Shown here: in pieces, positions 42,076 to 58,236 of the stretch
How the letters are laid out: each line of letters opens with the position of its first letter
How positions within the stretch are numbered: the stretch's first letter is position 1
Source of the DNA: Sphingopyxis sp.
GTDB taxonomy: Bacteria; Pseudomonadota; Alphaproteobacteria; Sphingomonadales; Sphingomonadaceae
Length of the DNA: 64,000 nucleotides
Assembly: GCA_016463225.1 (NCBI GenBank)
Contig: JAEMRT010000013.1
Location: 1-64,000, forward strand
Direction of reading: 5' to 3'
Program-made: the position numbers and the translations under genes
Notes under the pieces: model-generated
Database searches by the model: none
Seen by the model: only the letters and a program-made list of their open reading frames with translations
What the model was told of the DNA's origin: nothing

Positions 42076-43710
42076 TCAATCTCCGGCGGCACAGCCCGCC
42101 GGACGTGGCCGCAACAGGGCGCGTCCTGCTGCTGCGCCCATTGTGCGACCGTCGTCGAGCGCCAGCGCGCCGTTGACGAACAGGCTCTGGACCCCGACGC
42201 TGAGTTCGCGCGGGCGTACATAGTCGGCGCGCGGCGCATATCCGGCGGGGTCAAGGACGACGACGTCGGCGAAATAGCCCGGACGCAGATAGCCGCGGCG
42301 GTCGAGCTTGTAGATGTCGGCGGTGCGTCCGGTCGATTGGCGGATGAAGGTCGCCAGGCTGATGACCTTGCGCTCGCGGACATAGTGGACATATTTTTCG
42401 GGAAACGTCGCGAACATCCTCGGGTGGCCGTCCGATCCGTCGGACGAGGTCACCATCCACGGCTGTTGCATCAGCAGATCGACGTCGGCCTGCGCCATAT
42501 TGAACGATGCGACCGCGGTGCCGCCGCCCTTCTGTCCCGGCGCCATTATACCCTGCCGGATGATCCGCAGCGCCGCGTCGCGGCTATCCAGCTTCCATTC
42601 GGTCGCGACCTGCTCCAGCGTCTTGCCGGTCCAGGGAAAGCCGCCTGCGATGAGCAGCAACGCGCTGGCCCCGCCGCGCCGCCGTAGATTGTCCTGCATC
42701 TCGGCGCGGATCCGCGCCAGCGCGGCGGGATCGTCCAGCCGCTTCAGCAACGCCGCGCCGCCGCCATCGACCGCCCAGCGTGGCAACAACGACGCGTCGA
42801 GGCTCGATCCCGACGCGAGCCAGGGATATTGGTCGGCAGTGACATCGATCCCCGCCTTGCGCGCCGCATCGATCGCGGCGATCACCGCGCCGGCCTGTCC
42901 ATGGACATCAACGCCGAGCGCTTTGAGATGGGCAAAATGGACCGGCATTCCCGCTTGCCGACCGATATCGATCGCTTCCTGCACCGATCCGAGCAGGCCG
43001 ATGCTGTAGCTCGATTCGTCGCGTTGATGGGTGTCGTAAAGGCCACCACGGATCGCCGCTTCGCGTGCTACCGCAACGACCTCGCTGGTGGCCGCAAAGC
43101 TTTGCGGCGCATAGAACAGCCCGGTCGACAGCCCGACGGCGCCCTCGCACATGCCCTTCGCAACCAGTGCCTTCATCGCGTCAAGCTCTGCCGCGCTTGG
43201 CGCGCGGGCATCCTGACCCAACACGCGCTGGCGCACCGGGCCAAAGCCGACGAAGGGCACGATATTGGTGCCGATCCCCGACGCTGCCAGCTTGCCGCTG
43301 TCCGCCGCGACGTCGGGCGTCCCGTTGCCGTCGACCCCGATCATCACCGTGCTCACCCCTTGGTGGAGCCAGGCGGCGTTGACACGCACCGCCTTGTCGG
43401 GCGAACGCAGGAAGCTGTCGGCGTGGGTGTGCGGGTCGATGAAGCCGGGCGCGACGATCATGCCTTTGGCATCGATGACGCGCGCTGCAGTGTAGCGGCC
43501 GAGGCGACCGACGTGGACGATCCGGTCGCCGCGGATCGCAACATCGCCGACAAACGGCTCGCCCTCACCGCCGTCATAGATGGTTCCGCCGCGGATGATC
43601 ACGTCGACCGCCTCGTCCGTGCGGGCCATGGCACCTGCAACACTGAGCAGCGTTGCCGCCGCCGCTAGCGCGCCAATGGTCCGGCGGACCGGGAACGAGA
43701 CAGGCGACAT
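42076..43710 (-). CDS. D-aminoacylase / N-acyl-D-amino-acid deacylase family amidohydrolase
   Basis: About 544 residues with an N-terminal signal-like segment (to about 29, GAMA). The amidohydrolase fold has metal-binding HTH at 94-96 (GFIDPHTHADSF), a Cys/Glu-type AVGLSTGL segment and the catalytic TSSDGSDGHPR near 420. D-aminoacylases release D-amino acids from N-acyl-D-amino acids; the signal suggests periplasmic action. The gene diverges from the LysR gene (196-nt spacer) and is a likely member of the D-amino-acid cluster. Specific substrates cannot be read from sequence. Confidence 0.87.
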   Translation of the reverse strand: MSPVSFPVRRTIGALAAAATLLSVAGAMARTDEAVDVIIRGGTIYDGGEGEPFVGDVAIRGDRIVHVGRLGRYTAARVIDAKGMIVAPGFIDPHTHADSFLRSPDKAVRVNAAWLHQGVSTVMIGVDGNGTPDVAADSGKLAASGIGTNIVPFVGFGPVRQRVLGQDARAPSAAELDAMKALVAKGMCEGAVGLSTGLFYAPQSFAATSEVVAVAREAAIRGGLYDTHQRDESSYSIGLLGSVQEAIDIGRQAGMPVHFAHLKALGVDVHGQAGAVIAAIDAARKAGIDVTADQYPWLASGSSLDASLLPRWAVDGGGAALLKRLDDPAALARIRAEMQDNLRRRGGASALLLIAGGFPWTGKTLEQVATEWKLDSRDAALRIIRQGIMAPGQKGGGTAVASFNMAQADVDLLMQQPWMVTSSDGSDGHPRMFATFPEKYVHYVRERKVISLATFIRQSTGRTADIYKLDRRGYLRPGYFADVVVLDPAGYAPRADYVRPRELSVGVQSLFVNGALALDDGRTMGAAAGRALLRPRPAGCAAGD

Positions 43711-43831
43711 CGGCTTAATCCTTCCGTGCGAACGATGGCGAAGCGCAGGGCGCACCCGCCGCCGGTCGGCTATTCCGGCGCGCAAGATGTCCCGAACGGC
43801 AACCCCGCGTCCAGAGGGGGGAGTTGCAGCC

Positions 43832-43853
43832 CCTATAACCCAATGGCATAAGG
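43832..43853. promoter_or_regulatory. Candidate LysR binding dyad in the divergent spacer
   Basis: CCTATAA (43832-43838) and CATAAGG (43847-43853) form an imperfect 7-bp inverted repeat with an 8-nt spacer, in the spacer between the divergent amidohydrolase (43710) and lysR (43907) genes. LTTR sites commonly sit at this place. It resembles CTATA-type dyads at 44786-44804 and 54874-54893. Confidence 0.45.
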
Positions 43854-43906
43854 CGGCGACTTGTGGCCGTTCGCGGCCAGATTTCCGTCGCTTGGGAAAA
43901 AGCCAA

Positions 43907-44791
43907 ATGAACCTGCGCCAAATCGAAATCTTTCACGCGGTGTTCCTGCACGGCACGGTCAGCGCCGCCGCGCGCTCGCTCAATGTGTCGCAGCCGTCGG
44001 TGACCAAGGTGCTCCGCCACGCCGAACGCTCGATCGGGTTGACCCTGTTCGAGCGCGCCAAGGGGCGGCTGATCCCGACGCAGGACGCACACACGCTGTT
44101 TGCCGAAGTGTCCGACATTCAGGACCGCGTTCGCTCGCTGCGCCAGGCGTGTCAGAATCTGCGGCACGGGCGCGGCGGGCTGCTGCGTATTTCGGCGCTG
44201 CCTTCATTGGGCCTTGGCGCGATCCCCGCCGCGGTCGCGCGGTTCCTGGCCGATCATGAGGACATCATGTTCGATTTGCAGACGCTCCACCATGACGAAA
44301 TGGTGCGCAAGCTCTACGAGCACGAAACTGACATCGCGATCAGTTTCGAAGTGCCGTTGTCGGCCCCCGTCGCGCATCAGGTGATCGGCGAGGGCGAACT
44401 GGTGGTGATCTACCGCGAACAGGATATGCCTGCCGCGCCGCCGCGCCTGCATCTCGACGAGCTGCGCGGGCAAAAATTCATCAGCCCGGTGCAGAGCGGC
44501 CCGATCGGCCGGATGCTGTCGAGCGAGCTCAGCCGGCTGGAGGTCGAACTCGACGAGGTGGTCTCGGCGCGCACCTATTATGTCGCCGCTGCGCTGGTGA
44601 GCGCAGGGGTCGGCATGGCGATCGTCGACAATTTTACCGCGCACGCCGCGCTCCCGCCCGGGCTCGCGAGCCGCCCGTTGCAGCCCGCGATCACATTCGA
44701 CATCAACGCGGTCTATCTGCAGAACCGTCCGCTATCGCGAACGGCCGCCGACTTCCTGACGGTACTCGCCACCGTGATCGAAGGACTATAG
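43907..44791 (+). CDS. LysR-family transcriptional regulator
   Basis: A 294-residue LTTR. The HTH occupies 1-60 (MNLRQIEIFHAVFLHGTVSAAARSLNVSQPSVTKVLRHAE). A linker and the periplasmic-binding-protein-like effector domain follow (about 90-294, LRISALPSLGLGAIPAAVARF). Context suggests it senses a D-amino acid or related compound and controls the divergent and downstream genes. It resembles the regulator found beside DgcN-DgcA systems, but this is an inference. The start at 43907 is the only one giving a normal LTTR N-terminus. Confidence 0.93.
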   Translation: MNLRQIEIFHAVFLHGTVSAAARSLNVSQPSVTKVLRHAERSIGLTLFERAKGRLIPTQDAHTLFAEVSDIQDRVRSLRQACQNLRHGRGGLLRISALPSLGLGAIPAAVARFLADHEDIMFDLQTLHHDEMVRKLYEHETDIAISFEVPLSAPVAHQVIGEGELVVIYREQDMPAAPPRLHLDELRGQKFISPVQSGPIGRMLSSELSRLEVELDEVVSARTYYVAAALVSAGVGMAIVDNFTAHAALPPGLASRPLQPAITFDINAVYLQNRPLSRTAADFLTVLATVIEGL

Positions 44792-44804
44792 CATCAAGCT
44801 ATAG
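44786..44804. promoter_or_regulatory. Perfect CTATAGC dyad upstream of the dgcN-like gene
   Basis: CTATAGC (44786-44792) and GCTATAG (44798-44804) form a perfect 7-bp palindrome with a 5-nt centre. It overlaps the lysR stop and lies 84 nt ahead of the next gene's ATG at 44888. The position suits an LTTR activator or repressor site for the operon. Confidence 0.6.
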
Positions 44805-44887
44805 GATATGGGGCGCTCGATATTGGGGCCGGAGGGCGGGTGGAGGTAAAGTCGGCGCCTTCATCGTCCCGCAGGTTGACCCGAGCC

Positions 44888-45922
44888 ATGATCGAAACGC
44901 CCTATCTTCTCTACCTCGGCCATTCCAGTGACCCCGCCGACATCAAGACCTCGCGCGGGCTCGCCGTGTTTCGCCCCGACATCTGCATCGGCGAATATCG
45001 CCACGACGATTGCCCGCTGACGCTCGATTTGCCGCGCATGGATTTCGCCGCGGCCTATGCGGCGGGCGCGCGGACCCTGGTGCTGGGCATCGCCAATGCC
45101 GGGGGCAAGCTGGGCGAGGATCTGATCCTCGACGCGCTGGCCGCGATGGAGGCCGGGCTCGACGTGGCGTCGGGGCTGCACCACCGGCTGAACGCCGAAC
45201 CGCGGCTGGTCGAGGCCGCGGCGCGGCTCGGTCGCCGGCTGCACGATGTCCGCGACCCGCGCCCCGACATTCCGATCGGCAACGGCAAGAAGCGCGTGGG
45301 CAAGCGGCTGCTGACCGTGGGCACCGATTGCTCAGTGGGCAAGATGTACACGACCTTGTGCCTGACCAGCGCGCTCGAAAAGCGCGGCGTCGCCGCCGAT
45401 TTTCGCGCCACCGGCCAGACCGGCATCCTGATCGCGGGCGACGGCGTCCCGCTTGATGCCGTGGTCGCGGATTTCATCTCGGGCGCGATCGAACAGATTT
45501 CGCCCGCGCGCGGCGATGACGGCTGGGATCTGATCGAGGGGCAGGGTTCGCTCTATCACCCCTCCTTCGCCGGGGTGTCGATGGGCCTGATCCACGGCGC
45601 GCAGCCCGACGCGCTGGTCCTCTGCCACGATCCGGTGCGGCCGCATATGCGCGGCCTGCCGCATTACCAGTTGCCGGGTATCGCCGACTGCATCGAGGCT
45701 AATCTGCGCGCGGCGCGGCTGACCAACGCCGATGTGCGCTTCGTCGGCATCGCGCTCAACACGTCTGCGATGGCCGAGGATGAGGCGCGCGCGCTGTGCG
45801 CCGCGACCGAAGCCGAATTCGGCTTGCCGACCAGCGATCCGTATCGCTTCGGAGTCGAGACGATCCTCGACTGGCTGCTGGGCGCTGACGTTCATTCGCC
45901 GGCCGTCGCTGCAACCACCTGA
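44888..45922 (+). CDS. DUF1611 family protein, DgcN-type D-glutamate N-acetyltransferase candidate
   Basis: A 344-residue protein. The N-terminal Rossmann-like domain (IETPYLLYLGHSSDPADIKTSRG) is followed by a P-loop, GTDCSVGKM, at about 140 and a C-terminal domain with LIEGQGSLYHPSFAG and RPHMRGLP. In bacteria with a DgcN-DgcA pathway a DUF1611 protein acetylates D-glutamate, and the neighbouring enolase-superfamily racemase converts the product. Context fits but substrate is unproven. The ATG at 44888 gives the family start; the upstream frame is not conserved in appearance. The gene downstream begins 10 nt after its stop. Confidence 0.8.
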   Translation: MIETPYLLYLGHSSDPADIKTSRGLAVFRPDICIGEYRHDDCPLTLDLPRMDFAAAYAAGARTLVLGIANAGGKLGEDLILDALAAMEAGLDVASGLHHRLNAEPRLVEAAARLGRRLHDVRDPRPDIPIGNGKKRVGKRLLTVGTDCSVGKMYTTLCLTSALEKRGVAADFRATGQTGILIAGDGVPLDAVVADFISGAIEQISPARGDDGWDLIEGQGSLYHPSFAGVSMGLIHGAQPDALVLCHDPVRPHMRGLPHYQLPGIADCIEANLRAARLTNADVRFVGIALNTSAMAEDEARALCAATEAEFGLPTSDPYRFGVETILDWLLGADVHSPAVAATT

Positions 45923-45932
45923 CCGACCGGCC

Positions 45933-46925
45933 ATGCCCCGCACCCTGACCGTCTTTGCCGAGACGTTTCCGCTGCACGCCCCCTTTCGTATTTCGCGCGG
46001 GGTCAAGACCGCTGCCGAGGTCGTAACCGTTACCATCGGTCAGGACGGCATGACCGGGCGCGGCGAAGGCGTCCCCTATCCGCGCTATGGCGAGAGCGTC
46101 GGCAGCGCGATCGCCACTATCGAGGCGATGCGCGATGCACTCGAACAGGGGCTGGGCCGCCAGGAACTGCTCCAGCGCATGCCCGCCTCGGCCGCGCGCA
46201 ACGCGATCGATTGCGCGCTCTGGGATCTTGAACTGCAACTGGCGGGCAGCGATCTGGCCACGGCACTCGATCTCGATCGCCCGCTCCGCCCGATCGTCAC
46301 CGCAATGACGATCAGCCTTGATACCCCCGAAAACATGGCGCGCGCTGCGGCGGCGCTCGCCGACGCGCCGTTGCTCAAGGTGAAGGTCGACCGCAGCGAC
46401 CCGTCCACCTTGCTCACGGCGGTCCGCGCCGCAGCCCCGCTTTCGCGGATGATCGTCGACCCCAACGAAAGCTGGACCATCGACGAGGTGCGCGGCCTGC
46501 AAGGGCTGATCACCGATCTGCGGATCGACCTGCTCGAACAGCCGCTGCCCGCCGACGCCGATCGCGACCTCGTTGGTTTTCGCTCGGCGATCCCGATTGC
46601 GGCGGATGAATCGGTGCATGTCGCCGCCGATCTCGATGCGCTGCCCGATGGCTATGGGGTCGTGAATATCAAGCTCGACAAGACGGGCGGGCTGACGGCT
46701 GCGCTCGAACTGGCGGACGCGGCGCGGGCGCGCGGGCTGGGGGTGATGACCGGCTGCATGATCTGTTCGTCACTGTCGATCGCCCCCGCGTGGGCGATTG
46801 CTGCGAACAGTGCCTTCGCCGACCTTGACGGACCGCTCTGGCTTGCCGAGGATCGCGCGGGTGGGGTGAACGGTGCAATGGGCGTGCTGTCGCCGCCGCA
46901 GCCCGGTTTTTGGGGCGGGATTTGA
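45933..46925 (+). CDS. Enolase-superfamily epimerase (DgcA or L-Ala-D/L-Glu epimerase type)
   Basis: A 330-residue enolase-superfamily protein. The capping N-terminal domain has FPLHAPFRISRGVKTAAEVV. The barrel carries the epimerase residues: KVK in LLKVKVDRSD, the metal ligands Asp in MIVDPNESW, Glu in LLEQPLP and Asp in AADESVH, and a second-base Lys in IKLDKTGGL, followed by GCMICSSLSIAP. It interconverts stereoisomers of L-Ala-D/L-Glu, N-acetyl-Glu or a related compound. With DUF1611 next door, the N-acetyl-D-glutamate racemase role is likely. Confidence 0.87.
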   Translation: MPRTLTVFAETFPLHAPFRISRGVKTAAEVVTVTIGQDGMTGRGEGVPYPRYGESVGSAIATIEAMRDALEQGLGRQELLQRMPASAARNAIDCALWDLELQLAGSDLATALDLDRPLRPIVTAMTISLDTPENMARAAAALADAPLLKVKVDRSDPSTLLTAVRAAAPLSRMIVDPNESWTIDEVRGLQGLITDLRIDLLEQPLPADADRDLVGFRSAIPIAADESVHVAADLDALPDGYGVVNIKLDKTGGLTAALELADAARARGLGVMTGCMICSSLSIAPAWAIAANSAFADLDGPLWLAEDRAGGVNGAMGVLSPPQPGFWGGI

Positions 46926-46947
46926 CACGAACGGGGCAACAGGGCCG

Positions 46948-48186
46948 ATGACAGGATTTCTTCGCGGCTGGTTTGCAATTCCGCTGTGGCAGCGCGTCCT
47001 AGGGGCCATGATGATTGGCGTGCTGTTGGGCCTGTTCTGGCCCGCAGCGGCGTCTGCCATCGCCGTCATCGGCGAATTGTTCGTCCGGCTGATCCGGATG
47101 CTGGTCGTCCCCATCGTGTTCATCAGCATCGCGTCGGGGGTCACCGCGCTCGCTGACCCGCGCAAGCTGGGCTCGGTCGGCGCGCGTACGATCGGGCTGT
47201 TCGCTTTCACCACCTTCTGCGCGGTGTCGATCGGCATGGCCGTCGGGCTGTTGATCGAGCCCGGCGCAGGCGCGGCGCTGGGCAATGCCGTGCCGCATGC
47301 GCTGGGCGAGGCCAAGTCGCTGCACGATCAACTGGTCGGCATCGTGCCGGTCAACATCGTCCAGGCGCTGGTCGACGGCGACATGCTGGCGATCATCTTC
47401 TTTTCGATGCTGTTCGGCTTTGGCGTCATCGTCGCGGGCGAACAGGGACGCCCGATGGCGACCCTGCTGCAATCGGCAGGGCAGGTGCTGTTCCACCTCG
47501 TGCGGATCGTCATGGAGTTGACCCCCTTCGGCGTGCTCGCGCTGATCGCCAAGGCGGTCGCCGACAACGGCGTCGCGGTGTTCGCCAACATCGGCTGGCT
47601 GGCGGTCGCCGTCGCGGCGGGGGTAATCCTCCAGATCCTGCTCGTCCACCTGCCGCTCATCGCCTTTGCCGCGCGCCGGCCGGTGCTGCGCTTTTACCGC
47701 ACGATCGTCGACGCGCTCGCGGTCGCCTTTTCGACCGCATCGTCGGCCGCAACGCTACCCGTCGCGCTCCGCATCGCGCTCGACGATCTGCGGATCGCCC
47801 CCGGGGTGGCCAAGACCGTGCTGCCGATCGGCGCGAGCATCGGCAAGGACGGCACCGCGATGTATGTCGGGCTGCTCAGCATTTTCAGCCTGCAGGCGAT
47901 CGGCATTAGCCCGGATTTGTCGATGCTCGCGATCATCCTGCTGACCGGCGCGCTCGCCGCCTTCGGCACCGCACCGATCCCGTCGGCGTCGCTGTTCATG
48001 CTCGCCGCGGTGCTGTCGTCGGTCGGCATCACGCCCGAGCAGACTGCGCTGGTCGTCGGCTTCATCCTGCCCTTCGACCGCCTGCTCGACATGACGCGCA
48101 CGGTGGCGAGCGCCAGTGCCAATCTGACGGTCACGACCGTGGTGGCGCGCTGGGAAAAGGCGATTGAGCCGGAGGCCAGCAAATGA
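46948..48186 (+). CDS. Dicarboxylate/amino acid:cation symporter (DAACS, GltP-like)
   Basis: A 412-residue membrane transporter. It has the DAACS re-entrant-loop serines (AFSTASSAATLPVAL), a motif in the place of NMDGT (PIGASIGKDGTAMY) and the C-terminal DRLLDMTRTV, with hydrophobic helices throughout. It imports acidic amino acids or dicarboxylates with H+ or Na+; Lys in the usual Asn/Met position of the NMDGT motif may shift specificity. Its stop overlaps the next start by 4 nt, in the epimerase-permease operon. Confidence 0.9.
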   Translation: MTGFLRGWFAIPLWQRVLGAMMIGVLLGLFWPAAASAIAVIGELFVRLIRMLVVPIVFISIASGVTALADPRKLGSVGARTIGLFAFTTFCAVSIGMAVGLLIEPGAGAALGNAVPHALGEAKSLHDQLVGIVPVNIVQALVDGDMLAIIFFSMLFGFGVIVAGEQGRPMATLLQSAGQVLFHLVRIVMELTPFGVLALIAKAVADNGVAVFANIGWLAVAVAAGVILQILLVHLPLIAFAARRPVLRFYRTIVDALAVAFSTASSAATLPVALRIALDDLRIAPGVAKTVLPIGASIGKDGTAMYVGLLSIFSLQAIGISPDLSMLAIILLTGALAAFGTAPIPSASLFMLAAVLSSVGITPEQTALVVGFILPFDRLLDMTRTVASASANLTVTTVVARWEKAIEPEASK

Positions 48187-49763
48187 CCGCAACGGCATGT
48201 GATGCCGATGCTCCGGCAGCTGCGTTTTCGAGCGATATGGGTGCCAAGTCGGCGCAGCGACGCGTCCGCACCCTGTATCTGCTGCTCGGCTTTTCCGCCG
48301 GACTGCCCTTTTACATGTTTTCGACCGTGCTGGCGGTGCGGCTGACCGATCATGGCGTCGCGCTGGCGATCATCGGCTTTTTCGCCTGGGTCCAGTTGTT
48401 GCCGACCTTCAAATTCCTGTGGGCACCCTTGCTCGACCGCTATGCGGTGCCGGGCTTTGCGCGCTTCTGGGGAAAACGGCGCAGCTGGATCATGCTGTCA
48501 CAGCTCGGCATCGTGACCGCGATGGTGGCGATGGCGTTCACGTCGGCCGACAATAGCCTGGCGCTGACCGCATTGTTCGCCGTGCTGCTCGCGTTCTGGA
48601 CCACGACGCTGGAGGTCGCCGCCGATGCGTGGCGGGTCGAGCTTGGGCCAACCCCTGAGCTGCAGGGGCCGCTCGCGGCTGCGAACCTGTGGGGATACCG
48701 CACCGCGATGGTCGCGGCAGGCAGCGGCGCGCTGCTGTTCGCGGACGTCGGCGGCGACCTGGCGCCGACCCTGGCTTCCCTGGGAATCGTGCCCGGCTGG
48801 ACCGCCGCCTATCTGTTGATCGCGGTGGCGGCGTTTGTGCCTCTGCCGATCCTTGCGGCGCTCCCGCCCGAACGGCGCGGCGACGGCGGCCGCGCAGCCG
48901 CGCTGGCGGGCGGCTTGGTGACGAGTGCGGCGATCCTGCTCGCGCTGGCAGTTCTGGTCGCGGTGGTCGGTTGGATGTTGCTGGGCGCCGCCGCAGGTAT
49001 CGGGATCAGCGCCACGACGAACGTCACACCATGGGTTCTTGGAATCGCCATGCTGCCGTTCCTGGCGATGGCGGCGATGCTGCCGCGCATCCGCGACGCC
49101 GCACCGGATTCGCCGCTGCGTTCTTCGGCGGCGATCGGCCCCTATGTGGATTTCTTCTGGCGCTACGGCGGTCTCGCAATCGCATTGATGGCATTTGTTT
49201 CCATCTATCGCATGGGCGACGTGCTGGCGCTCAACCTGTCCAAGCCCATGATCCTCGGTATCGGCTATACCAAGACGGAGATCGGCTGGGCAGATGGCGT
49301 GGTGGCCTTGGCCGCCAGTATCGTCGGCGTGGGGCTCGGCGGATGGATGACGACCCGCTGGCGGTTCGGCCTCACGTTAACGATCGGGGCGTTATTTGCG
49401 GCGTTCGGCAATTTCGGCTTCGTCTGGCTCGCGCACCAGCCGCATGACCAGACCCTGCTCTATATCGCGACCGCCGCCGATCAGTTTGGCAATGGCATGG
49501 CCGGCGCCATCTTTGTCGTTTACCTGTCGATGCTGGTGAACCCGCGCTTTCCGGGCGCGCAATATGCCTTTCTGTCGGGCTTCGCCTTCCTGTTGCCGCG
49601 ATTATTATCGGGGGCAGGGGGCACCGTGGTCGGGCGGCTCGACGCAGCGGGGTATAATGGCTTCGATCTGTTCTTCCTGGCCTCGGGCGTGATCAGCTTG
49701 GCGGCGGTCTTGTTTCTGCCGCTGATCGGGCGGGCCAAGGCCCGGGCGGACGATCGGCCATGA
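48183..49763 (+). CDS. AmpG-like MFS permease
   Basis: A 526-residue major-facilitator protein. The AmpG-like start RTLYLLLGFSAGLPFYMFSTVLAVRL and the loop KFLWAPLLDRYAVP ... KRRSWIMLSQ match the muropeptide permease family, with about 14 hydrophobic helices. AmpG imports GlcNAc-anhydroMurNAc peptides from the periplasm in peptidoglycan recycling. Substrate here is inferred. It overlaps both neighbours by 4 nt, so import is coupled to the hydrolase genes behind. Confidence 0.85.
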   Translation: MTATACDADAPAAAFSSDMGAKSAQRRVRTLYLLLGFSAGLPFYMFSTVLAVRLTDHGVALAIIGFFAWVQLLPTFKFLWAPLLDRYAVPGFARFWGKRRSWIMLSQLGIVTAMVAMAFTSADNSLALTALFAVLLAFWTTTLEVAADAWRVELGPTPELQGPLAAANLWGYRTAMVAAGSGALLFADVGGDLAPTLASLGIVPGWTAAYLLIAVAAFVPLPILAALPPERRGDGGRAAALAGGLVTSAAILLALAVLVAVVGWMLLGAAAGIGISATTNVTPWVLGIAMLPFLAMAAMLPRIRDAAPDSPLRSSAAIGPYVDFFWRYGGLAIALMAFVSIYRMGDVLALNLSKPMILGIGYTKTEIGWADGVVALAASIVGVGLGGWMTTRWRFGLTLTIGALFAAFGNFGFVWLAHQPHDQTLLYIATAADQFGNGMAGAIFVVYLSMLVNPRFPGAQYAFLSGFAFLLPRLLSGAGGTVVGRLDAAGYNGFDLFFLASGVISLAAVLFLPLIGRAKARADDRP

Positions 49764-50773
49764 TCGACGCCGTCTTTCAGCCGGTGGCGGCAGCGGTCGA
49801 GGCCGGGCGGATTCCCGGCGCGGCGCTGGGTATGGTTTCGATCGATGGCGAAAGCGCGGTGCGCTTCGCGGGCATGGCCGCGCTTGTCCCCGAACGCGAA
49901 AACCTGACGCGCGACCATTGGTTCGACCTTGCTTCGCTCAGCAAGGTGATCGCGACCACCACGATCATCCTGACCCTCGCGCAACAGGGCCGCGTCGACC
50001 TCGACCGGCCGCTGACCGACGCGATTCCGGACCTGCGCCAATATGACGTTGCGAACGCCGCCGAGCGCCGCTTGACCTTTCGCGACTGCCTGATGCACCG
50101 GACCTTCCTGCCCGCGGTCGAGCCGATCTATACCTATGGCGACGACCCCGCCCGGCTGCGCGCTTTTGTCCTGCAACGCGAATGGCGCCATGGGCCGCCA
50201 GTCTATTCGGACATCAATTTCATCCTTCTCGGTATCGCGATCGAGCGCCTGATCGGCGCGCCGCTGTCGGACTGGCCTTTGGGCGAAGGGCTCGGCTTTG
50301 GCCCACCCCCCGGCCCCGCCGTCGCGACCGAGCATTGCAGCTGGCGCGGACGCGTGATGAAGGGCGAAGTCCACGACGAAAATGCCTTCGCGCTTGGCGG
50401 CGCGCCGGGGCATGCGGGGATGTTCGGTACCATCGACGGTGTACTGCGTTTTGCCCGCGCGATGCTCGATGGCTCGATACTGTCCCCGGCGATGCTGGCC
50501 GAAATCCGCACCGCCGACGAACGCCACCGCACCTGCGGCTGGGAGCGCGCCTTTGCCGGATGGCACGGCGGCGACGCCTGCTCGCCCGATACCATTGGCC
50601 ACACCGGGTTCACCGGCACCGGGCTATGGATCGATTTCGAGCGCGGCCTTTGCTGGGCGCTGCTGACCAACCGGGTCCATCCGACCCGCCACTTCGACAG
50701 CGGCATTGCGACGTTGCGCTCCGCCGTGGGCGAACAGCTTATCAATGCATGGGACGCACGGGAGACATCATGA
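49760..50773 (+). CDS. Serine hydrolase of the beta-lactamase fold
   Basis: A 337-residue protein without a visible signal peptide. The SxxK motif is SLSK (Ser59, Lys62), the tyrosine motif is YSDIN (Tyr149), and HTGFTG appears in the KTG position. This is the EstB/class C-like family, usually esterases or amidases; a D-peptidase role would fit the neighbours. It has 4-nt overlaps with AmpG and the carboxypeptidase gene, so it is made together with them. It would act in the cytoplasm unless secreted by another route. Confidence 0.85.
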   Translation: MIDAVFQPVAAAVEAGRIPGAALGMVSIDGESAVRFAGMAALVPERENLTRDHWFDLASLSKVIATTTIILTLAQQGRVDLDRPLTDAIPDLRQYDVANAAERRLTFRDCLMHRTFLPAVEPIYTYGDDPARLRAFVLQREWRHGPPVYSDINFILLGIAIERLIGAPLSDWPLGEGLGFGPPPGPAVATEHCSWRGRVMKGEVHDENAFALGGAPGHAGMFGTIDGVLRFARAMLDGSILSPAMLAEIRTADERHRTCGWERAFAGWHGGDACSPDTIGHTGFTGTGLWIDFERGLCWALLTNRVHPTRHFDSGIATLRSAVGEQLINAWDARETS

Positions 50774-52248
50774 AAACTTCGATCAGACATCTCGCCCCGG
50801 TCTTTGCTCTGGCGCTGCTGCTCGCCCCGGCCCACGCCCGCGCCCCCGCTGATTCCGCGCCCGCGCCGCTGCTAACCACCGTCGAGCAGAAACTGGCCGA
50901 AGCACCGGCAGGTTCACGATTTGGCGTGCTCGTCACGACGCTCGATGGCGAAGTGCTGCTGTCGATCGCGCCCGACCAGCGTTTCATCCCCGCTTCGAAC
51001 ACCAAGATGTTCACCACCGCGATCGGCTATGCCCAACTGCCGCTGCTTCAACAGACAGCCAAAGGCACCGGCGTCCGGCTCGAAACCGGCGGTGGTGCGA
51101 CCGACGTCGTGCTCCACGGCCGCGGCGACCCTTTGTTGTCGAGCGCCGACGACTGCAAGACCGACTGCCTGCAAACGCTCGCCGACGCCGTCGCCGCCAA
51201 AACCCGCACGGTCCGCAACATCGTCGGCGACGACAGCTGGTTCCCCGACGAGCGCTGGAGCCCAGGGATGAGCTGGAACAATATCGTCTCGCGCTATGGC
51301 ACCGGCACCTCGGCGCTGACCCTCGACGACAATGAGCTGGTCGTGAAGCTGGCGCCGGGCGCCCTCGGGGCCGCGCCGACGATCCAGACATCGGGCTATT
51401 ACAGCATCGAAAACCGGGTCACGACCGTCGCGGGCAAGGAGGAAGCAATCGAGGCCGATCGCATGCCGAACAGCCGCGTGATTCGTCTGACCGGCACGGT
51501 CGGCGCCGACGTTGCGCCGCTGACGCTGCGCTATGGCATTGACGATCCGGCGCATTATGCTGCGTGGCGGCTTGGCGAGCTGCTGGAGGCGCGCGGGGTG
51601 AAGGTCGATGGTGCGGTTGAAGTCCGCCACCGGCCGCTGACCGCCACCGACGATCCAAAGGTCCGCAAGGGCGCGCGGGTCAGCCTGCCCGCCGAACCCG
51701 CGATGCTCGCCGAACTGCCCGCGCCGCCGCTCGCCGAAAATATGGTGCGGGTCAACAAGGAGAGCCAGAATCTCCACAGCGAGCTGATGCTGCGCCGCGT
51801 CGCGCGGCACGCGGGCAGCGGTTCGGTCGCCGATGGGCAGGCGGCGGTGCGGCAGCTGATGACGCAGGCCGGGGTCGCCGAAACCAGCTACGACTTTTCG
51901 GACGGATCGGGCATGTCGAGCTATAACCGCATCTCGCCACGCGCCGCGGTCGGCCTGCTCAGCTGGATCTCCCGCCAGCCGTGGAGCATGGCGTGGCGCG
52001 ATACGCTGCCGATCGCGGGGCGCGACGGCACCTTGCAGAACCGCTTCAAAGGCACGATCCTCGAAGGCAAATTATTTGCCAAGACCGGGTCGCTCAACGC
52101 ATCGCGCGCATTGTCGGGGTATCTGACGACGCGCAGCGGGCGGACATTGATCTTTTCGGTGCTGGCCAACGATATGCCTGACGGCACCGACAGTCAGGCG
52201 ACCGCCGCGGTTGATCGCGCGCTAGTTGTGATTGCCGAGGCGCTATAG
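50770..52248 (+). CDS. dacB: D-alanyl-D-alanine carboxypeptidase/endopeptidase (PBP4-type)
   Basis: A 492-residue PBP4-like enzyme. Signal peptide 1-24 (ALLLAPAHARA). SxxK motif SNTK (Ser76, Lys79). The long insertion between motifs is typical. The second region is SDGSGMSSYNRIS, and the KTG region is FAKTGSLNASRALSGYL. It removes the terminal D-Ala or cleaves cross-links in peptidoglycan in the periplasm. The ATG at 50770 overlaps the preceding stop. It is the last gene of the operon, followed by a palindromic repeat. Confidence 0.92.
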   Translation: MKTSIRHLAPVFALALLLAPAHARAPADSAPAPLLTTVEQKLAEAPAGSRFGVLVTTLDGEVLLSIAPDQRFIPASNTKMFTTAIGYAQLPLLQQTAKGTGVRLETGGGATDVVLHGRGDPLLSSADDCKTDCLQTLADAVAAKTRTVRNIVGDDSWFPDERWSPGMSWNNIVSRYGTGTSALTLDDNELVVKLAPGALGAAPTIQTSGYYSIENRVTTVAGKEEAIEADRMPNSRVIRLTGTVGADVAPLTLRYGIDDPAHYAAWRLGELLEARGVKVDGAVEVRHRPLTATDDPKVRKGARVSLPAEPAMLAELPAPPLAENMVRVNKESQNLHSELMLRRVARHAGSGSVADGQAAVRQLMTQAGVAETSYDFSDGSGMSSYNRISPRAAVGLLSWISRQPWSMAWRDTLPIAGRDGTLQNRFKGTILEGKLFAKTGSLNASRALSGYLTTRSGRTLIFSVLANDMPDGTDSQATAAVDRALVVIAEAL

Positions 52249-52277
52249 CCGCTGATGGCCGAGTAAAAGCACTGTGC

Positions 52278-52353
52278 TCCCGCGAAGGCGGGAGCCCATC
52301 ACCCGCTGGTGCCATTTTGGATCGACCGGAGATGGATCCCCGCCTTCGCGGGG
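52278..52353. repeat. Palindromic intergenic repeat between dacB and the penicillin acylase
   Basis: About 22-nt arms (TCCCGCGAAGGCGGGAGCCC... and the mirror ending CCGCCTTCGCGGGG) with three or so mismatches flank about 32 nt. It sits in the convergent 3' ends of dacB and the acylase gene, so it could act as a bidirectional processing or stabilising hairpin. It is a different sequence from the 78-bp elements. Confidence 0.75.
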
Positions 52354-52400
52354 AAACACGGATATTGTTCGCCTCACAGGCAAAGATGCTTGTGACGGGA

Positions 52401-54791: not shown

Positions 54792-55206
54792 ATTTCCCCG
54801 ATACCTTATGCCGATGACGAATGGTCAACCTATCGTAGCAAGGCGTCGCTATCCCATAGCAAGCGGACCACCCCCTATAACTATAAGCTATCCGGCCCTG
54901 CGCGGCACTGCGGCGATGCCATGCCCTGCGGCTATAGGTCCATATCGTCAGGGTCAGCGCGAAGCGGTTGACCGCCCGTAACCACCCTGTAACCTTCCCG
55001 TCACGGACCCGGCTGTCCGCGCGCCGCAAGCGCAGCGACCGTCGGACCGCAAAGGTCGAAAGCCACAAAAACATAGAGGGCGGCACAAACAGCCGCCAGG
55101 CGGTCAGGGCGGACATAGTGGGGGCGAGCTAGCCCGGTGCATCGGCGCCGGGAACCACATCGAACGATGTGCGGCGCGTCTTTGGGCAATAAAGGGGACG
55201 GTTAAC
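54792..55206. promoter_or_regulatory. 415-bp divergent regulatory region
   Basis: No gene is visible in this gap between the divergent acylase and TonB-receptor genes. It carries CCTATAACTATAAGCTATCC (54874-54893), GCTATAGG (54931-54938), and an imperfect direct repeat with TAGCAAG near 54830-54865, all resembling the CTATA dyads near lysR. Promoters for both genes and LysR sites are the likely content. Confidence 0.5.
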
Positions 55207-58200
55207 ATGCGCTATCTTGAACGAAATCGCCGGTCGTTGGGCCGCAACACCAGCTTCGGCGCAGCGATGACCGCACTGGCGCTCGTTCACAGCGCTCCGG
55301 CGCTGGCGCAAGAGGAAGCCGCTGTGGCGCAGGCGACCGAAGCCGCACCCGGCGATCAGATCATCGTTACCGGCTCGCGCGTCGCGCGCGATGGTTTCGA
55401 GGCACCGACCCCGCTGACCGTGCTGACCGAAACCGAGATCGAAAATAGCTCGCCGTCGAACAACATCGCCGATTTCGTCAATACGCTGCCGTCGCTGGCC
55501 GGTTCGACCCGTCCGTCCAACTCGCGCCTCAACATTTCCAGCGGTCAGGCGGGCATCAACGCGCTCAACCTGCGAAATCTGGGGGCTGAACGCACGCTGA
55601 TCCTGGTCAACGGAAAGCGCTCGGTGGGTTCGACGATCACTGGCCTGGTCGATATCAACACCATTCCGCAGGCGCTGATTTCGAGCGTCGAGGTCGTGAG
55701 CGGCGGCGCCTCCGCCGCTTATGGCTCGGACGCGGTTGCGGGCGTCGTCAACTTCATCCTCAACAACAAATATGAGGGGCTGAAGGTCGAGGCCGATAGC
55801 GGCATCACCCAATATGGCGACGGCTTCAACTATTCGGCCAGCGCCGCCGCCGGGATGGCGTTTGCGGGCGGGCGCGGCCATGTCCTGCTGAGCGGCGAGA
55901 TCGCTCACCGCGACGGCATTTTCGATGTGAACCGCGACTGGAACGCCACCGGTTTCGTCCGCATCCAGGACCCGGCCTATACCGCGACCAGCGGCGGACC
56001 GCAGTTTCTGATCCGCCGCCAGGTCGGCGCAGCGAACTCGGCGCCGGGCAGCCTTATCACCAATTCGACCGGAGGAACCGCCAACCGGCTGCGCGGGATT
56101 TATTTTGGTCCCGGCGGTACACCCCTTACCTACACCTATGGGGCGCTGACCTTCCCGGTTGCGACCGGCACCGCGGCGCCTTCACTGACGCAAGGTGGAT
56201 CGTGGCAGGTGAATGATTCGGGCCGCCGCATCGGCCTGGATCCAGAGGATGACCGTTACGGGTTGTTCGGCCGTGTCAGCTTTGAGGTCACCGACGGCAT
56301 CGAGCTGTTCGCCGAAGCCGCGTATAACCAGCAGAAGATAAGGTTCAACGCCGGGCCGAACCTGCAGACCGGGATCGTGCTCAATGCGACCGGCTGTACC
56401 CAGACGCCGGTGCCGATCACTTGCAACGCCTTCCTGCTCAACACGCTGGGCGCGGCGGCGCTACAGGGCATCACCAGCGTCACCATTGCCACGACATCGG
56501 CCGATCTGCCCGGCCGCGGGATCGACAACAAGCGTAAGGTGCAGCGCTATCTGATCGGCGCGCAGGGCGAGTTCGAGGCGTTCGGCAACACCGCGCGCTG
56601 GGACATTTTCGGCCAATATGGCCGCGCCGAGCTGCGCGAGCAGTTGCGCGACATTCAGAACGTCGCGCGCATCAACGCCGCGCGCGATGCGGCCTTCGCG
56701 CCCGCGGGCAGCGGCTTCCCTACCGGGTCGATCCAGTGTCTGATCAACGTCGATGCCAACCCGGCCAACAACGACGCCGCGTGCGTTCCGCTCAACCGTC
56801 TCGGTCTGGGCGTCGCCCACCCGGCGGCGATCGATTATGTGCTGGGCGATCCGTATCGCGACCAGGTGATCGAACAGACCGTGGTGGGCGCGAACTTCTC
56901 GGCCACGCCGTTCGCGACTTGGGCGGGCGACGTCAGCGTCGCGATCGGCGCCGAATATCGCAACGAAGAGGTAAAGGGATTCGTCCCGGACGAGTTCCAG
57001 CCCGTCCCGATCCGCGATGTGAACGGCAATGTCACCGGCGCCACCAATCGCTGGTCGGTGGGCAACTACCTGCCCAGCTTCGGGTCGTATGACGTCAAGG
57101 AAGCCTATTTCGAAACCGTCGTTCCGCTCGGCTTCGGGCTGGAGTTCAATGGCGCAGTGCGCGGGACCGATTATTCGACCGCAGGCTATGTCACGACCTG
57201 GAAAGTGGGCGCGACCTGGCAGCCGATCGACGACATTCGCTTGCGCGTCACCCGTTCGCGCGACATCCGCGCGCCCAACCTGAACGACCTGTTCCAGGCG
57301 GGTACAGCCAACAGCGATGCGGTCACCAACCCTGGCTTTGCGGCCGGTACCAGCCCGTCCTTCGTTCCGCCGGGCCTGGTTGTGCAGTCGGGCTATAGCT
57401 ATTCCGGGTTCGCCACCGGCAATACGGACCTCGGCCCGGAAAAGTCCAATCAATGGAATATTGGCGGGGTATTCACGCCGACCTTCCTCCCGGGCTTCAA
57501 CCTTGCGGTCGATTATTTCAGCATCAAGGTGAATAGCGGGATCAGCGCCTTCAGCGCGCAGCAGATTGTCAATTTGTGCTTCCTGGGCGAGCAGGCGTTC
57601 TGCGACGCCATTACGACCGACGCGGCGCGCACGCAGGATCCGGCGCGGCCATATCTGATCATCGAGACGCGGCCGTTCAACGCGGCAAGCCAGAAGGTCC
57701 GCGGTGTCGACATCGATGCGTCCTATCGCCTGCCGGTTGGCAATGCTGGCGCGTTCACGCTTCGCGGTCTTGCGACCCGCTATCTGGAGAACCGCTTCGA
57801 CAGCGGCGTACCAGGCACGGTGGTGGTCGATTCGACCGGTGTGAATGGCGGCCAGTCGAGCACCCCGAAATGGATCTACCGCGTCAGCGCGTCTTATGAT
57901 TCGGACGACTTCAGCATCACGGCGACCGGTCGCGGCGTGAGCGCGGGCAAATATGTCGCCAACGGCATCGAATGCCAGACGGGCTGCCCCACCTCGACGG
58001 TCAATGCACCCACCTATGACAGCAACCGCATCAAAGGGGCGTTCTACGTCGATCTCAACCTGACGCAGAAATTCTCCGCCGGTGGCGACGCGCAGGGGGA
58101 ATTCTTCATCAACGTGTCGAACCTGCTCAACGACGACCCGATCCTGCTGCCCGAAACCGGCCTCGCCGCGAACAGCACCTATTCGGACCTGCTGGGCCGC

Positions 58201-58236
58201 GCATTCCGCGTCGGAGTGCGCTTTAAACTGAAATGA
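55207..58236 (+). CDS. TonB-dependent outer-membrane receptor, large
   Basis: A 1009-residue receptor. Signal peptide (to about 35, SAPALAQ), TonB-box-like QIIVTGSRVARDGFEAPTPL, and a plug domain with NLGAERTLILVNGKR and VEVVSGGASAAYGSDAVAGVVNFILNN. This is the Oar/CirA-like class seen for peptide, carbohydrate or lipid ligands. The barrel ends RVGVRFKLK. It is divergent from the acylase, so uptake and hydrolysis of an acylated or peptide ligand may be linked. It is followed by a rho-independent terminator. Confidence 0.93.
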   Translation: MRYLERNRRSLGRNTSFGAAMTALALVHSAPALAQEEAAVAQATEAAPGDQIIVTGSRVARDGFEAPTPLTVLTETEIENSSPSNNIADFVNTLPSLAGSTRPSNSRLNISSGQAGINALNLRNLGAERTLILVNGKRSVGSTITGLVDINTIPQALISSVEVVSGGASAAYGSDAVAGVVNFILNNKYEGLKVEADSGITQYGDGFNYSASAAAGMAFAGGRGHVLLSGEIAHRDGIFDVNRDWNATGFVRIQDPAYTATSGGPQFLIRRQVGAANSAPGSLITNSTGGTANRLRGIYFGPGGTPLTYTYGALTFPVATGTAAPSLTQGGSWQVNDSGRRIGLDPEDDRYGLFGRVSFEVTDGIELFAEAAYNQQKIRFNAGPNLQTGIVLNATGCTQTPVPITCNAFLLNTLGAAALQGITSVTIATTSADLPGRGIDNKRKVQRYLIGAQGEFEAFGNTARWDIFGQYGRAELREQLRDIQNVARINAARDAAFAPAGSGFPTGSIQCLINVDANPANNDAACVPLNRLGLGVAHPAAIDYVLGDPYRDQVIEQTVVGANFSATPFATWAGDVSVAIGAEYRNEEVKGFVPDEFQPVPIRDVNGNVTGATNRWSVGNYLPSFGSYDVKEAYFETVVPLGFGLEFNGAVRGTDYSTAGYVTTWKVGATWQPIDDIRLRVTRSRDIRAPNLNDLFQAGTANSDAVTNPGFAAGTSPSFVPPGLVVQSGYSYSGFATGNTDLGPEKSNQWNIGGVFTPTFLPGFNLAVDYFSIKVNSGISAFSAQQIVNLCFLGEQAFCDAITTDAARTQDPARPYLIIETRPFNAASQKVRGVDIDASYRLPVGNAGAFTLRGLATRYLENRFDSGVPGTVVVDSTGVNGGQSSTPKWIYRVSASYDSDDFSITATGRGVSAGKYVANGIECQTGCPTSTVNAPTYDSNRIKGAFYVDLNLTQKFSAGGDAQGEFFINVSNLLNDDPILLPETGLAANSTYSDLLGRAFRVGVRFKLK

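What the first reader, a model, noticed from the sequence alone, without database searches (positions are those of the whole stretch)
42076..58236. Candidate D-amino-acid / peptidoglycan-peptide scavenging cluster under a LysR regulator
One block holds a D-aminoacylase-type amidohydrolase, LysR regulator, DUF1611 (DgcN-like) acetyltransferase, Glu-type epimerase, acidic amino acid symporter, AmpG-like muropeptide permease, serine hydrolase and PBP4-type carboxypeptidase, then a penicillin-acylase-like amidase and TonB receptor. Six of the seven plus-strand genes from DUF1611 on are coupled by overlaps or 10-22-nt gaps. The individual families are known and the DgcN-DgcA route for D-Glu is described, but this union with AmpG, PBP4 and an acylase/TonB pair suggests a complete route from wall peptides or N-acyl-D-amino acids outside the cell to L-glutamate, with NAD-glutamate dehydrogenase a few kb away.
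Basis: partly seen in the sequence, partly recalled or inferred. Interest (0 to 1): 0.75.

Follow-up and report, generated by a model that had tools for sequence, protein, structure and literature searches.

The report
Muropeptide and D-glutamate scavenging operon
This Sphingopyxis DNA carries a conserved set of genes that probably takes up fragments of bacterial cell wall, cuts the peptide off the sugar and turns its unusual D-glutamate into ordinary L-glutamate, and it includes a second wall-fragment importer and a probably cytoplasmic penicillin-fold enzyme of untested function.

Summary
Six plus-strand genes (dgcN, dgcA, acidic amino-acid symporter, AmpG-like permease, serine hydrolase "SerH", PBP4) are chained by gaps of 10, 22, -4, -4 and -4 nt. 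DgcN, DgcA and PBP4 pass curated NCBIfam cut-offs.

New here: (1) the permease is a second AmpG paralog, adjacent to SerH in all six SerH-carrying genomes among 118 of the order. (2) SerH shows no signal peptide by eye, shares motifs with E. coli PBP4B/YfeW (murQ-murP-yfeW operon), and relatives sit in MurNAc-catabolism clusters in Rhizobium, Deinococcus and Thermomicrobium. (3) Two Sphingobium replicons hold the whole set with murQ, NagK-type kinase, nagA, a NagB-II-like gene and D-lactate dehydrogenase in one ~24 kb stretch. (4) A conserved LysR-type box lies between the D-aminoacylase and lysR; a looser second one precedes dgcN.

Most likely a muropeptide-scavenging operon coupled to D-Glu catabolism; the Sphingopyxis form is its peptide half, since MurQ, AnmK and the BadF kinase were not found in this genome. 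"Complete route" is too strong: no stem-peptide peptidase or N-acetyl-L-Glu deacetylase was identified in the cluster, and no activity is shown. New variant of a known kind.

The parts
42076..43710 (-). D-aminoacylase / N-acyl-D-glutamate deacylase-type amidohydrolase, 544 aa, with a signal-peptide-like N-terminus (by eye)
   Evidence: PF07969/PF01979; best PDB relatives D-aminoacylase 1rjp (216 bits) and, lower, N-acyl-D-glutamate deacylase 3gip (167 bits); start; near SerH in 60 of 80 loci
43833..43850 (+). LysR-type box 1, CTATAACCCAATGGCATA, in the shared D-aminoacylase/lysR promoter region
   Evidence: conserved with few changes in the 16 aligned intergenic regions, window plus 15 loci; found with up to 3 mismatches in 28 of 104 sequences scanned, 0 hits in one mononucleotide shuffle of the same 2.08 Mb
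43907..44791 (+). LysR-type regulator, 294 aa
   Evidence: PF00126 + PF03466; start
44787..44804 (-). possible LysR-type box 2, CTATAGCTTGATGCTATA, overlapping the lysR stop codon, upstream of dgcN
   Evidence: fits a degenerate pattern that I wrote from both sites; not found with up to 3 mismatches to box 1; alignment mostly keeps it but L075, L083 and L084 differ
44888..45922 (+). dgcN, D-glutamate N-acetyltransferase (DUF1611 family), 344 aa
   Evidence: NF041892 518 bits > cut-off 480; PF07755 + PF17396
45933..46925 (+). dgcA, N-acetyl-D-Glu racemase / L-Ala-D/L-Glu epimerase family, 330 aa
   Evidence: NF042940 423 bits > cut-off 400; PRK15129 (L-Ala-D/L-Glu epimerase) 323 bits < 343; PDB 4gfi and 1jpd with the DLD segment kept
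46948..48186 (+). DAACS/SDF acidic amino-acid symporter, 412 aa
   Evidence: PF00375 332 bits; best PDB relative an aspartate transporter, 9bgz, with the DRxLDMxRT segment kept; NCBIfam best is DctA-type, 210 bits, far below its cut-off 513
48183..49763 (+). AmpG2: second AmpG-like muropeptide permease, 526 aa
   Evidence: TIGR00901 329 bits, below cut-off 350; another AmpG over cut-off at G000:C96, 410 bits; PDB relatives AmpG 9c3f/8zgz
49760..50773 (+). SerH: PBP4B/YfeW-like serine hydrolase, 337 aa, no signal peptide by eye; proposed cytoplasmic MurNAc-L-Ala amidase
   Evidence: PF00144; SxxK, YSD, GxVHD...GHAG and GHTGxTGT shared with YfeW; relatives clustered with murQ/anmK/nagZ
50770..52248 (+). 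PBP4-type D,D-carboxypeptidase/endopeptidase, 492 aa, signal-peptide-like N-terminus (by eye)
   Evidence: TIGR00666 218 bits > cut-off 108; PF02113
52401..54791 (-). penicillin-acylase-family amidase, 796 aa, N-terminal RRxFL-type export signal (by eye); substrate unknown
   Evidence: PF01804 601 bits; near SerH in 54 of 80 loci
55207..58236 (+). TonB-dependent receptor, 1009 aa
   Evidence: PF00593 + PF07715; a TonB receptor near SerH in 62 of 80 loci, some at only 25-30% identity

Best explanation
The block is a LysR-controlled operon for scavenging peptidoglycan fragments and their D-glutamate. Proposed route: the TonB receptor takes up wall fragments or N-acyl peptides. In the periplasm PBP4, the penicillin-acylase-like enzyme and the D-aminoacylase trim and deacylate them. 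Free acidic D-amino acids enter by the SDF symporter and muropeptides by AmpG2. In the cytoplasm SerH, an SxxK serine amidase, cuts the MurNAc-L-Ala bond. The peptide is degraded by peptidases encoded elsewhere. D-Glu, or L-Ala-D-Glu, is converted to the L form by DgcN/DgcA. Freed MurNAc goes to an AmgK/MurU-like salvage pair in this genome, or to MurQ catabolism in Sphingobium-type forms. Shown here: gene content, conservation, co-occurrence, motifs and a conserved LysR-type box. Inferred: every substrate and reaction, export of the periplasmic enzymes, LysR control itself, and the location and role of SerH.
For: DgcN and DgcA pass equivalog cut-offs. In 118 order genomes a SerH ortholog over 500 bits is in 6, and an AmpG-like gene of 325-342 bits lies beside it in all 6. 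In 77 of 80 named-genome SerH loci AmpG2 lies within 200 nt upstream on the same strand. Two Sphingobium replicons carry BadF/NagK kinase, dld, nagA, NagB-II-like gene, murQ, GntR, AmpG2, SerH, PBP4, acylase, TonB receptor, D-aminoacylase, LysR, dgcN, dgcA and SDF in one stretch. MurQ is in 17 of 80 SerH loci, 9 of them together with DgcN/DgcA. Outside the order, 9 of 12 hand-chosen SerH loci have MurQ and/or AnmK. In 299 Pseudomonadota genomes the SerH family is in 14 and MurQ in 47, both in 11 (Fisher p 1.2e-7), within 10 kb in 9 of 14. G108 links an AmpG, NagA, SIS protein, BadF, MurQ and GntR to PBP4-SDF-D-aminoacylase-DgcA-DgcN-LysR. Mpl is over its cut-off in 0 of 118, so re-ligation of stem peptides by Mpl is not expected. 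TsaE-APH-nucleotidyltransferase genes in this genome.
Against: None of the 6 sampled genomes of the window's genus has a full-length MurQ hit, an AnmK, or a BadF kinase over cut-off. DgcN matches occur in 65 of 118 order genomes but SerH in 6, so DgcN mostly lives without SerH; the same goes for MurQ (36 of 47 MurQ genomes lack SerH). AmpG2 falls below the AmpG cut-off. All six SerH genomes have another AmpG over cut-off, and all 10 genomes checked have an Amidase_2 (AmpD-type) protein, so SerH/AmpG2 are not needed for ordinary recycling. No stem-peptide peptidase or N-acetyl-L-Glu deacetylase was identified in the cluster. Three of the 12 SerH loci outside the order show no wall-sugar genes. 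19 of 80 loci have neither DgcN/DgcA nor MurQ in the flanks (several truncated). G108 has the linked set without a SerH ortholog. The fold does not separate amidase from peptidase or esterase (mean pLDDT 69). No biochemical evidence.
Confidence: 0.66

Rival explanations
1. D-amino-acid scavenging only: the core is the D-Glu/D-Asp pathway (D-aminoacylase, SDF symporter, DgcN, DgcA), and AmpG2, SerH and PBP4 handle other D-amino-acid peptides rather than wall sugars; SerH would be a DL- or DD-peptidase or D-amino-acid amidase. (Overlaps with the best explanation on the D-Glu part.)
For: Fold matches include D-amino acid amidase, Lip3 DL-peptidase and R61 DD-peptidase; the closest PDB sequence is D-amino acid amidase at 41 bits. 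MurQ, AnmK and BadF kinase were not found in this genome. No LysR box was found upstream of AmpG2 where it is a separate unit.
Against: SerH relatives sit with AnmK, MurQ and, in two loci, NagZ in stretches where DgcN/DgcA were searched for and not found (Deinococcus, Thermomicrobium, Rhizobium). Sphingobium AmpG2-SerH follows murQ-GntR directly.
Confidence: 0.2
2. Own-wall recycling, not scavenging: AmpG2/SerH is a backup or condition-specific recycling branch for the cell's own turnover products, perhaps acting on non-anhydro MurNAc-peptides that feed the AmgK/MurU-like salvage pair.
For: No AnmK was found, but a TsaE-APH-nucleotidyltransferase set (AmgK/MurU-like) is present. Caulobacter lacks LdcA, Mpl and MurQ and may degrade stem peptides to amino acids (PMC13046382, passages).
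Against: A linked TonB receptor, an exported-looking acylase and D-aminoacylase, and plasmid/chromid carriage with D-lactate dehydrogenase and NagA point to uptake as food.
Confidence: 0.2
3. A relative of the microcystin-degradation (mlr) system of the same genera, which also pairs a permease (MlrD) with a serine hydrolase (MlrB) on a D-Glu-containing peptide.
For: Same genera, similar pairing logic (PMC6563193 and PMC12474180, passages); that microcystin's Glu is D-Glu is recalled.
Against: MlrB is described as periplasmic and is 1626 bp, MlrD as a 1272-bp dipeptide/tripeptide permease; SerH is 337 aa without visible signal peptide and AmpG2 is a 526-aa AmpG relative.
Confidence: 0.03

Closest known systems
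DgcN-DgcA D-glutamate pathway (Yu et al. 2023, ISME J; not held, seen only as cited in passages of PMC12363236 and PMC10845958)
   Same: Both enzymes pass the curated equivalog cut-offs; adjacent genes.
   Different: Here in one operon with an AmpG paralog, SerH and PBP4, and in Sphingobium beside the MurNAc-catabolic genes. Whether the original paper describes such neighbours could not be checked.
MurNAc catabolic operons: E. coli murQ-murP-yfeW; B. subtilis murQ-murR-murP-amiE-nagZ
   Same: A serine hydrolase or amidase gene next to MurNAc-6P etherase genes (E. coli; B. subtilis: PMC5061867, passages); SerH shares motifs with YfeW.
   Different: SerH lacks the signal peptide that YfeW shows (by eye). 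AmiE is described as working in extracellular muropeptide degradation (PMC5061867). An AmpG-type importer (or, in Rhizobium and Mariluticola, an oligopeptide-type ABC transporter) stands in place of the MurP PTS. The AmiE sequence was not compared here.
Tannerella forsythia ampG-murT-murK-murQ operon (PMC7670621, passages)
   Same: AmpG plus MurNAc kinase and etherase in one transcription unit, used on foreign wall fragments.
   Different: Serves a bacterium that cannot make MurNAc, in another phylum; no DgcN/DgcA in the passages read.
Canonical AmpG/AmpD/Mpl wall recycling
   Same: AmpG-family importer; an Amidase_2 (AmpD-type) protein is in the genome.
   Different: Mpl over cut-off in 0 of 118 order genomes; AmpG2/SerH are additional to the housekeeping set.

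Membership tests
DgcN-DgcA pathway | DgcN equivalog (NF041892) over curated cut-off | tested here: met
   518.4 vs 480 bits
DgcN-DgcA pathway | DgcA equivalog (NF042940) over curated cut-off | tested here: met
   423.3 vs 400 bits; also close to L-Ala-D/L-Glu epimerase PRK15129, 323.3 vs cut-off 343
DgcN-DgcA pathway | acetyltransferase and racemase activity on D-Glu | not testable with these tools
   needs purified enzymes
AmpG muropeptide permease (TIGR00901) | score over family cut-off | tested here: not met
   328.7 vs 350 bits; an AmpG-like paralog, not filed as AmpG proper
AmpG muropeptide permease (TIGR00901) | homology to solved AmpG over both halves | tested here: met
   two matched stretches with 9c3f, 136 bits
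PBP4B/YfeW (NF002968) | score over family cut-off | tested here: not met
   75.8 vs 385 bits
PBP4B/YfeW (NF002968) | SxxK, YSD, GxVHD...GHAG and GHTGxTGT motifs (motif set chosen by me from the alignment) | tested here: met
   invariant positions in alignment A1 of 9 sequences incl. YfeW
PBP4B/YfeW (NF002968) | murQ in the neighbourhood | tested here: not met
   no MurQ in the window's genome, though near SerH relatives elsewhere
AmiE-type MurNAc-L-Ala amidase | amidase activity | not testable with these tools
   needs assay; the AmiE sequence was not compared either
PBP4 (TIGR00666) | score over cut-off | tested here: met
   218.5 vs 107.8 bits
Mpl peptide recycling | Mpl (TIGR01081) in the genome | tested here: not met
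   0 of 118 over cut-off; the second weak hit in the window's genome scores best as MurC, 246 bits, below the MurC cut-off 335
MurQ-type MurNAc catabolism | MurQ and kinase in the same genome | tested here: not met
   not found in G000; found on the Sphingobium replicons
mlr microcystin cluster | periplasmic MlrB-size hydrolase and MlrD-size peptide permease | tested here: not met
   sizes and location differ; sequences not compared

The most novel reading that the evidence does not exclude
SerH is a cytoplasmic serine-dependent (SxxK, penicillin-binding-protein fold) MurNAc-L-alanine amidase, a non-homologous counterpart of AmpD tied to dedicated importers (AmpG2 in sphingomonads, oligopeptide-type ABC transporters in Rhizobium and Mariluticola). 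Together with DgcN-DgcA it defines a nutritional route from foreign muropeptides to L-glutamate. The same activity would explain the orphan E. coli YfeW, and it would give DgcN-DgcA a role in consuming wall-derived D-Glu.
Probability: 0.4. Interest if true: 0.75.

Novelty: new variant of a known kind. Interest (0 to 1): 0.56.

Why it matters
It links two pathways that the papers I saw treat apart: D-glutamate catabolism by DgcN-DgcA and MurNAc/muropeptide catabolism by MurQ. It nominates one small soluble enzyme family as a cytoplasmic muropeptide amidase that can be assayed directly. If right, soil and water sphingomonads eat other bacteria's cell walls by a dedicated gene set that can sit on plasmids, and an E. 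coli enzyme of the murQ operon gains a function to test.

Tried and rejected
Considered C4-dicarboxylate transport for the SDF protein (the NCBIfam best match is DctA-type, far below cut-off): disfavoured, since the best PDB relative is an aspartate transporter with the DRxLDMxRT segment kept (the substrate meaning of that segment is recalled). Considered a hidden Mpl: the weak second hit in the window's genome is MurC-like. Considered the mlr microcystin system: sizes and location differ. Considered GDH as part of the cluster: nearby in the window, but the p-A-Sy cluster is followed by an integrase. Looked for LysR box 1 in front of separate AmpG2-SerH units: none with up to 3 mismatches; two 3-mismatch hits elsewhere (L094, and L145 beside BadF/MurQ) were left as weak. 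Promoter/terminator scan: 0 promoter-like sites, 10 terminator-like against 7.0 expected. SerH model: mean pLDDT 69, and the fold search only places it in the beta-lactamase/S12 fold. My simple ORF caller merged or missed genes (it lost SerH in the window), so counts come from tblastn, not from it.

The primary DgcN-DgcA paper is not held. No paper on this sphingomonad cluster was seen in the listings of searches. Three of those lists were capped: 20 of 127, 10 of 38 and 10 of 396. The library misses most subscription journals, so this is no proof that it is unpublished.

The three rivals overlap with the best explanation, so the figures do not sum to one.
Full report
WHAT IS THERE. DgcN (518 vs cut-off 480), DgcA (423 vs 400) and PBP4 (218 vs 108) pass curated cut-offs; the AmpG-like protein (329 vs 350) and the serine hydrolase (PBP4B model, 76 vs 385) do not. 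From dgcN to pbp4 the six genes are separated by 10, 22, -4, -4 and -4 nt, and lysR lies 96 nt upstream of dgcN. An NAD-glutamate dehydrogenase starts at 60752 and runs off the window. Signal peptides were judged by eye only.

THE PERMEASE IS A SECOND AmpG. The genome has another AmpG over the cut-off (G000:C96, 410 bits), as have the other five SerH genomes. In 118 genomes of the order, a SerH ortholog over 500 bits occurs in six. In all six an AmpG-like hit of 325-342 bits lies beside it. A seventh genome, G006, has an AmpG-like hit in that score range (333 bits); it is that genome's only one, and I did not examine it. Of the 35 genomes of the window's family in the sample, DgcN over 400 bits is in 6 of 6 with SerH and 2 of 29 without (Fisher p 1.7e-5, not corrected for relatedness). 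Against this, DgcN matches occur in 65 of the 118 genomes at E up to 0.001 (29 over cut-off), so DgcN mostly lives without SerH outside that family.

THE SET TRAVELS TOGETHER BUT IS RESHUFFLED. A scan of named genomes for close SerH relatives gave 163 confirmed, of which the best 80 were kept. In these 80, AmpG2 lies within 200 nt upstream on the same strand in 77. PBP4 is present in 66, TonB receptor 62, D-aminoacylase 60, penicillin acylase 54, SDF 53, DgcA 53, DgcN 51 and LysR 47; loci reach at most 10 kb each side and many are cut, and the TonB count includes distant receptors. L077 and L078 are the same records as G097 and G035. Most Sphingopyxis loci have the single operon; a few (L056, L072, L076) have dgcN-dgcA divergent from AmpG2-SerH-PBP4. 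Many Sphingomonas have AmpG2-SerH convergent with a block of PBP4, SDF, D-aminoacylase, DgcA, DgcN and LysR. In 7 of 8 Sphingobium loci murQ and GntR are in the flank.

THE LINK TO WALL SUGARS. In S. yanoikuyae plasmid p-A-Sy one stretch of about 24 kb holds a BadF/NagK-type kinase, D-lactate dehydrogenase, nagA, a SIS protein (best match NagB-II, 301 vs cut-off 430), murQ, GntR, AmpG2, SerH, a second serine hydrolase, PBP4, penicillin acylase, TonB receptor, D-aminoacylase, LysR, dgcN, dgcA and SDF. Sphingobium sp. V4 has the same set in the same relative order, the second serine hydrolase apart. MurQ is in 17 of 80 SerH loci, a BadF kinase in 18, and 9 loci have both MurQ and DgcN/DgcA. Outside the order I read 12 SerH loci chosen by hand from the 44 plasmid records (five of them first picked). 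Nine have MurQ and/or AnmK (Mariluticola, five Rhizobium, two Deinococcus, Thermomicrobium); two Deinococcus and one Haladaptatus do not. Four of the Rhizobium stretches are unannotated and were read by tblastn only. In 299 Pseudomonadota genomes the SerH family (profile A1, E up to 1e-40) is in 14 and MurQ (E up to 1e-30) in 47, both in 11 (Fisher p 1.2e-7), and 9 of 14 have the two genes within 10 kb. Limits: only the 7 best candidates per genome were scored; five of the nine are related genomes of one family (f16); in G039 the nearby gene is a distant SerH paralog, not the ortholog; and A1 was built from sequences I had partly met in such clusters. Independent events are therefore fewer than nine. 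A genome without a SerH ortholog (G108) links another AmpG, NagA, a SIS protein, BadF, MurQ and GntR to PBP4, SDF, D-aminoacylase, DgcA, DgcN and LysR.

WHAT SerH IS. By eye it has no signal peptide. It shares SxxK, YSD, GxVHD...GHAG and GHTGxTGT with E. coli YfeW/PBP4B, whose gene follows murQ and murP. In B. subtilis the corresponding operon holds amiE, described as a MurNAc-L-Ala amidase in extracellular muropeptide degradation (PMC5061867, passages); I could not compare its sequence. The predicted fold (mean pLDDT 69) matches beta-lactamase-fold amidases, peptidases and esterases without singling one out. The amidase function is therefore an inference from gene neighbourhood.

WHAT IS MISSING HERE. 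Full-length MurQ hits (245 bits or more in this order) are in none of the six sampled genomes of the window's genus. The order's MurQ proteins all score below the TIGR00274 cut-off of 302, but the p-A-Sy one passes two other MurQ models. AnmK is in none of the six, and the BadF kinase reaches its cut-off in none; G000 is 96% complete with 7% contamination. S. jiangsuensis (L075) does have MurQ and GntR about 7 kb beyond SerH. The window's genome has TsaE, an APH-family kinase and a nucleotidyltransferase in a row, resembling tsaE-amgK-murU (the name is by position and recalled). An Amidase_2 (AmpD-type) protein is in all 10 genomes checked. Mpl is over its cut-off in 0 of 118, and is reported missing in Caulobacter, where stem peptides may be degraded (PMC13046382, passages). 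No stem-peptide peptidase or N-acetyl-L-Glu deacetylase was identified in the operon.

REGULATION. A LysR-type box at 43833-43850 is kept in the window and 15 loci with few changes. With up to 3 mismatches it is found in 28 of 104 sequences scanned, and in none of one mononucleotide shuffle of them. A second site at 44787-44804 fits a looser pattern that I wrote from both window sites (two matches, expected 0.03). Because the pattern was fitted, that figure understates chance, and the second site was not found with up to 3 mismatches to the first. If both bind LysR, the D-aminoacylase, lysR and the whole dgcN-pbp4 operon share one regulator.

SUBSTRATE CLUES. DgcA's closest solved relatives are 4gfi and the L-Ala-D/L-Glu epimerase 1jpd, so it may act on L-Ala-D-Glu as well as N-acetyl-D-Glu. 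The symporter is closest to an aspartate transporter. The amidohydrolase is closest to D-aminoacylase, then N-acyl-D-glutamate deacylase among others.

VERDICT. A conserved muropeptide-scavenging and D-glutamate-catabolising gene set; in this genome, its peptide half. New variant of a known kind.

Noticed in passing
window 48183-49763 and 55207-58236; loci L054, L057-L059, L077, L078: AmpG2 (and to a degree the TonB receptor) appears swapped in place: 93-94% identical in L054/L077/L078 but about 60% in many other Sphingopyxis whose SerH is 82-90% identical.
   Followed up: partly
L043 (G000:C9) and L044 (G000:C41): The genome holds two further DgcN copies, each in a stretch that also holds a D-aminoacylase paralog. 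G000 is 5.6 Mb with 7% contamination, so some copies may come from another strain.
   Followed up: partly
L048 1699-3081 (G000:C130): A second, divergent MurC-like ligase (246 bits, below the MurC cut-off 335); similar second hits to the Mpl model appear in many genomes of the same family.
   Followed up: partly
L047 1907-3970; L094, L095, L101, L105, L113, L114, L117, L120, L132: Several sphingomonad loci hold an S9/DPP-IV-like peptidase (8 of 80) and/or another amidohydrolase (7 of 80) in the cluster, candidates for the missing peptidases.
   Followed up: no
window 36782-38068: Another beta-lactamase-family serine hydrolase a few kb upstream of the cluster; not among the genes whose conservation I tested.
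   Followed up: no
L041 8742-11939 (G039:C6): A distant SerH paralog (31%) stands next to BadF kinase and MurQ in the same genome that holds the AmpG2-SerH pair.
   Followed up: partly
L157 9001-9971 (Rhizobium oryzihabitans plasmid): SerH match in two pieces and no gene listed there, next to a recombinase and a Tn3 transposase: possibly a decaying copy.
   Followed up: no
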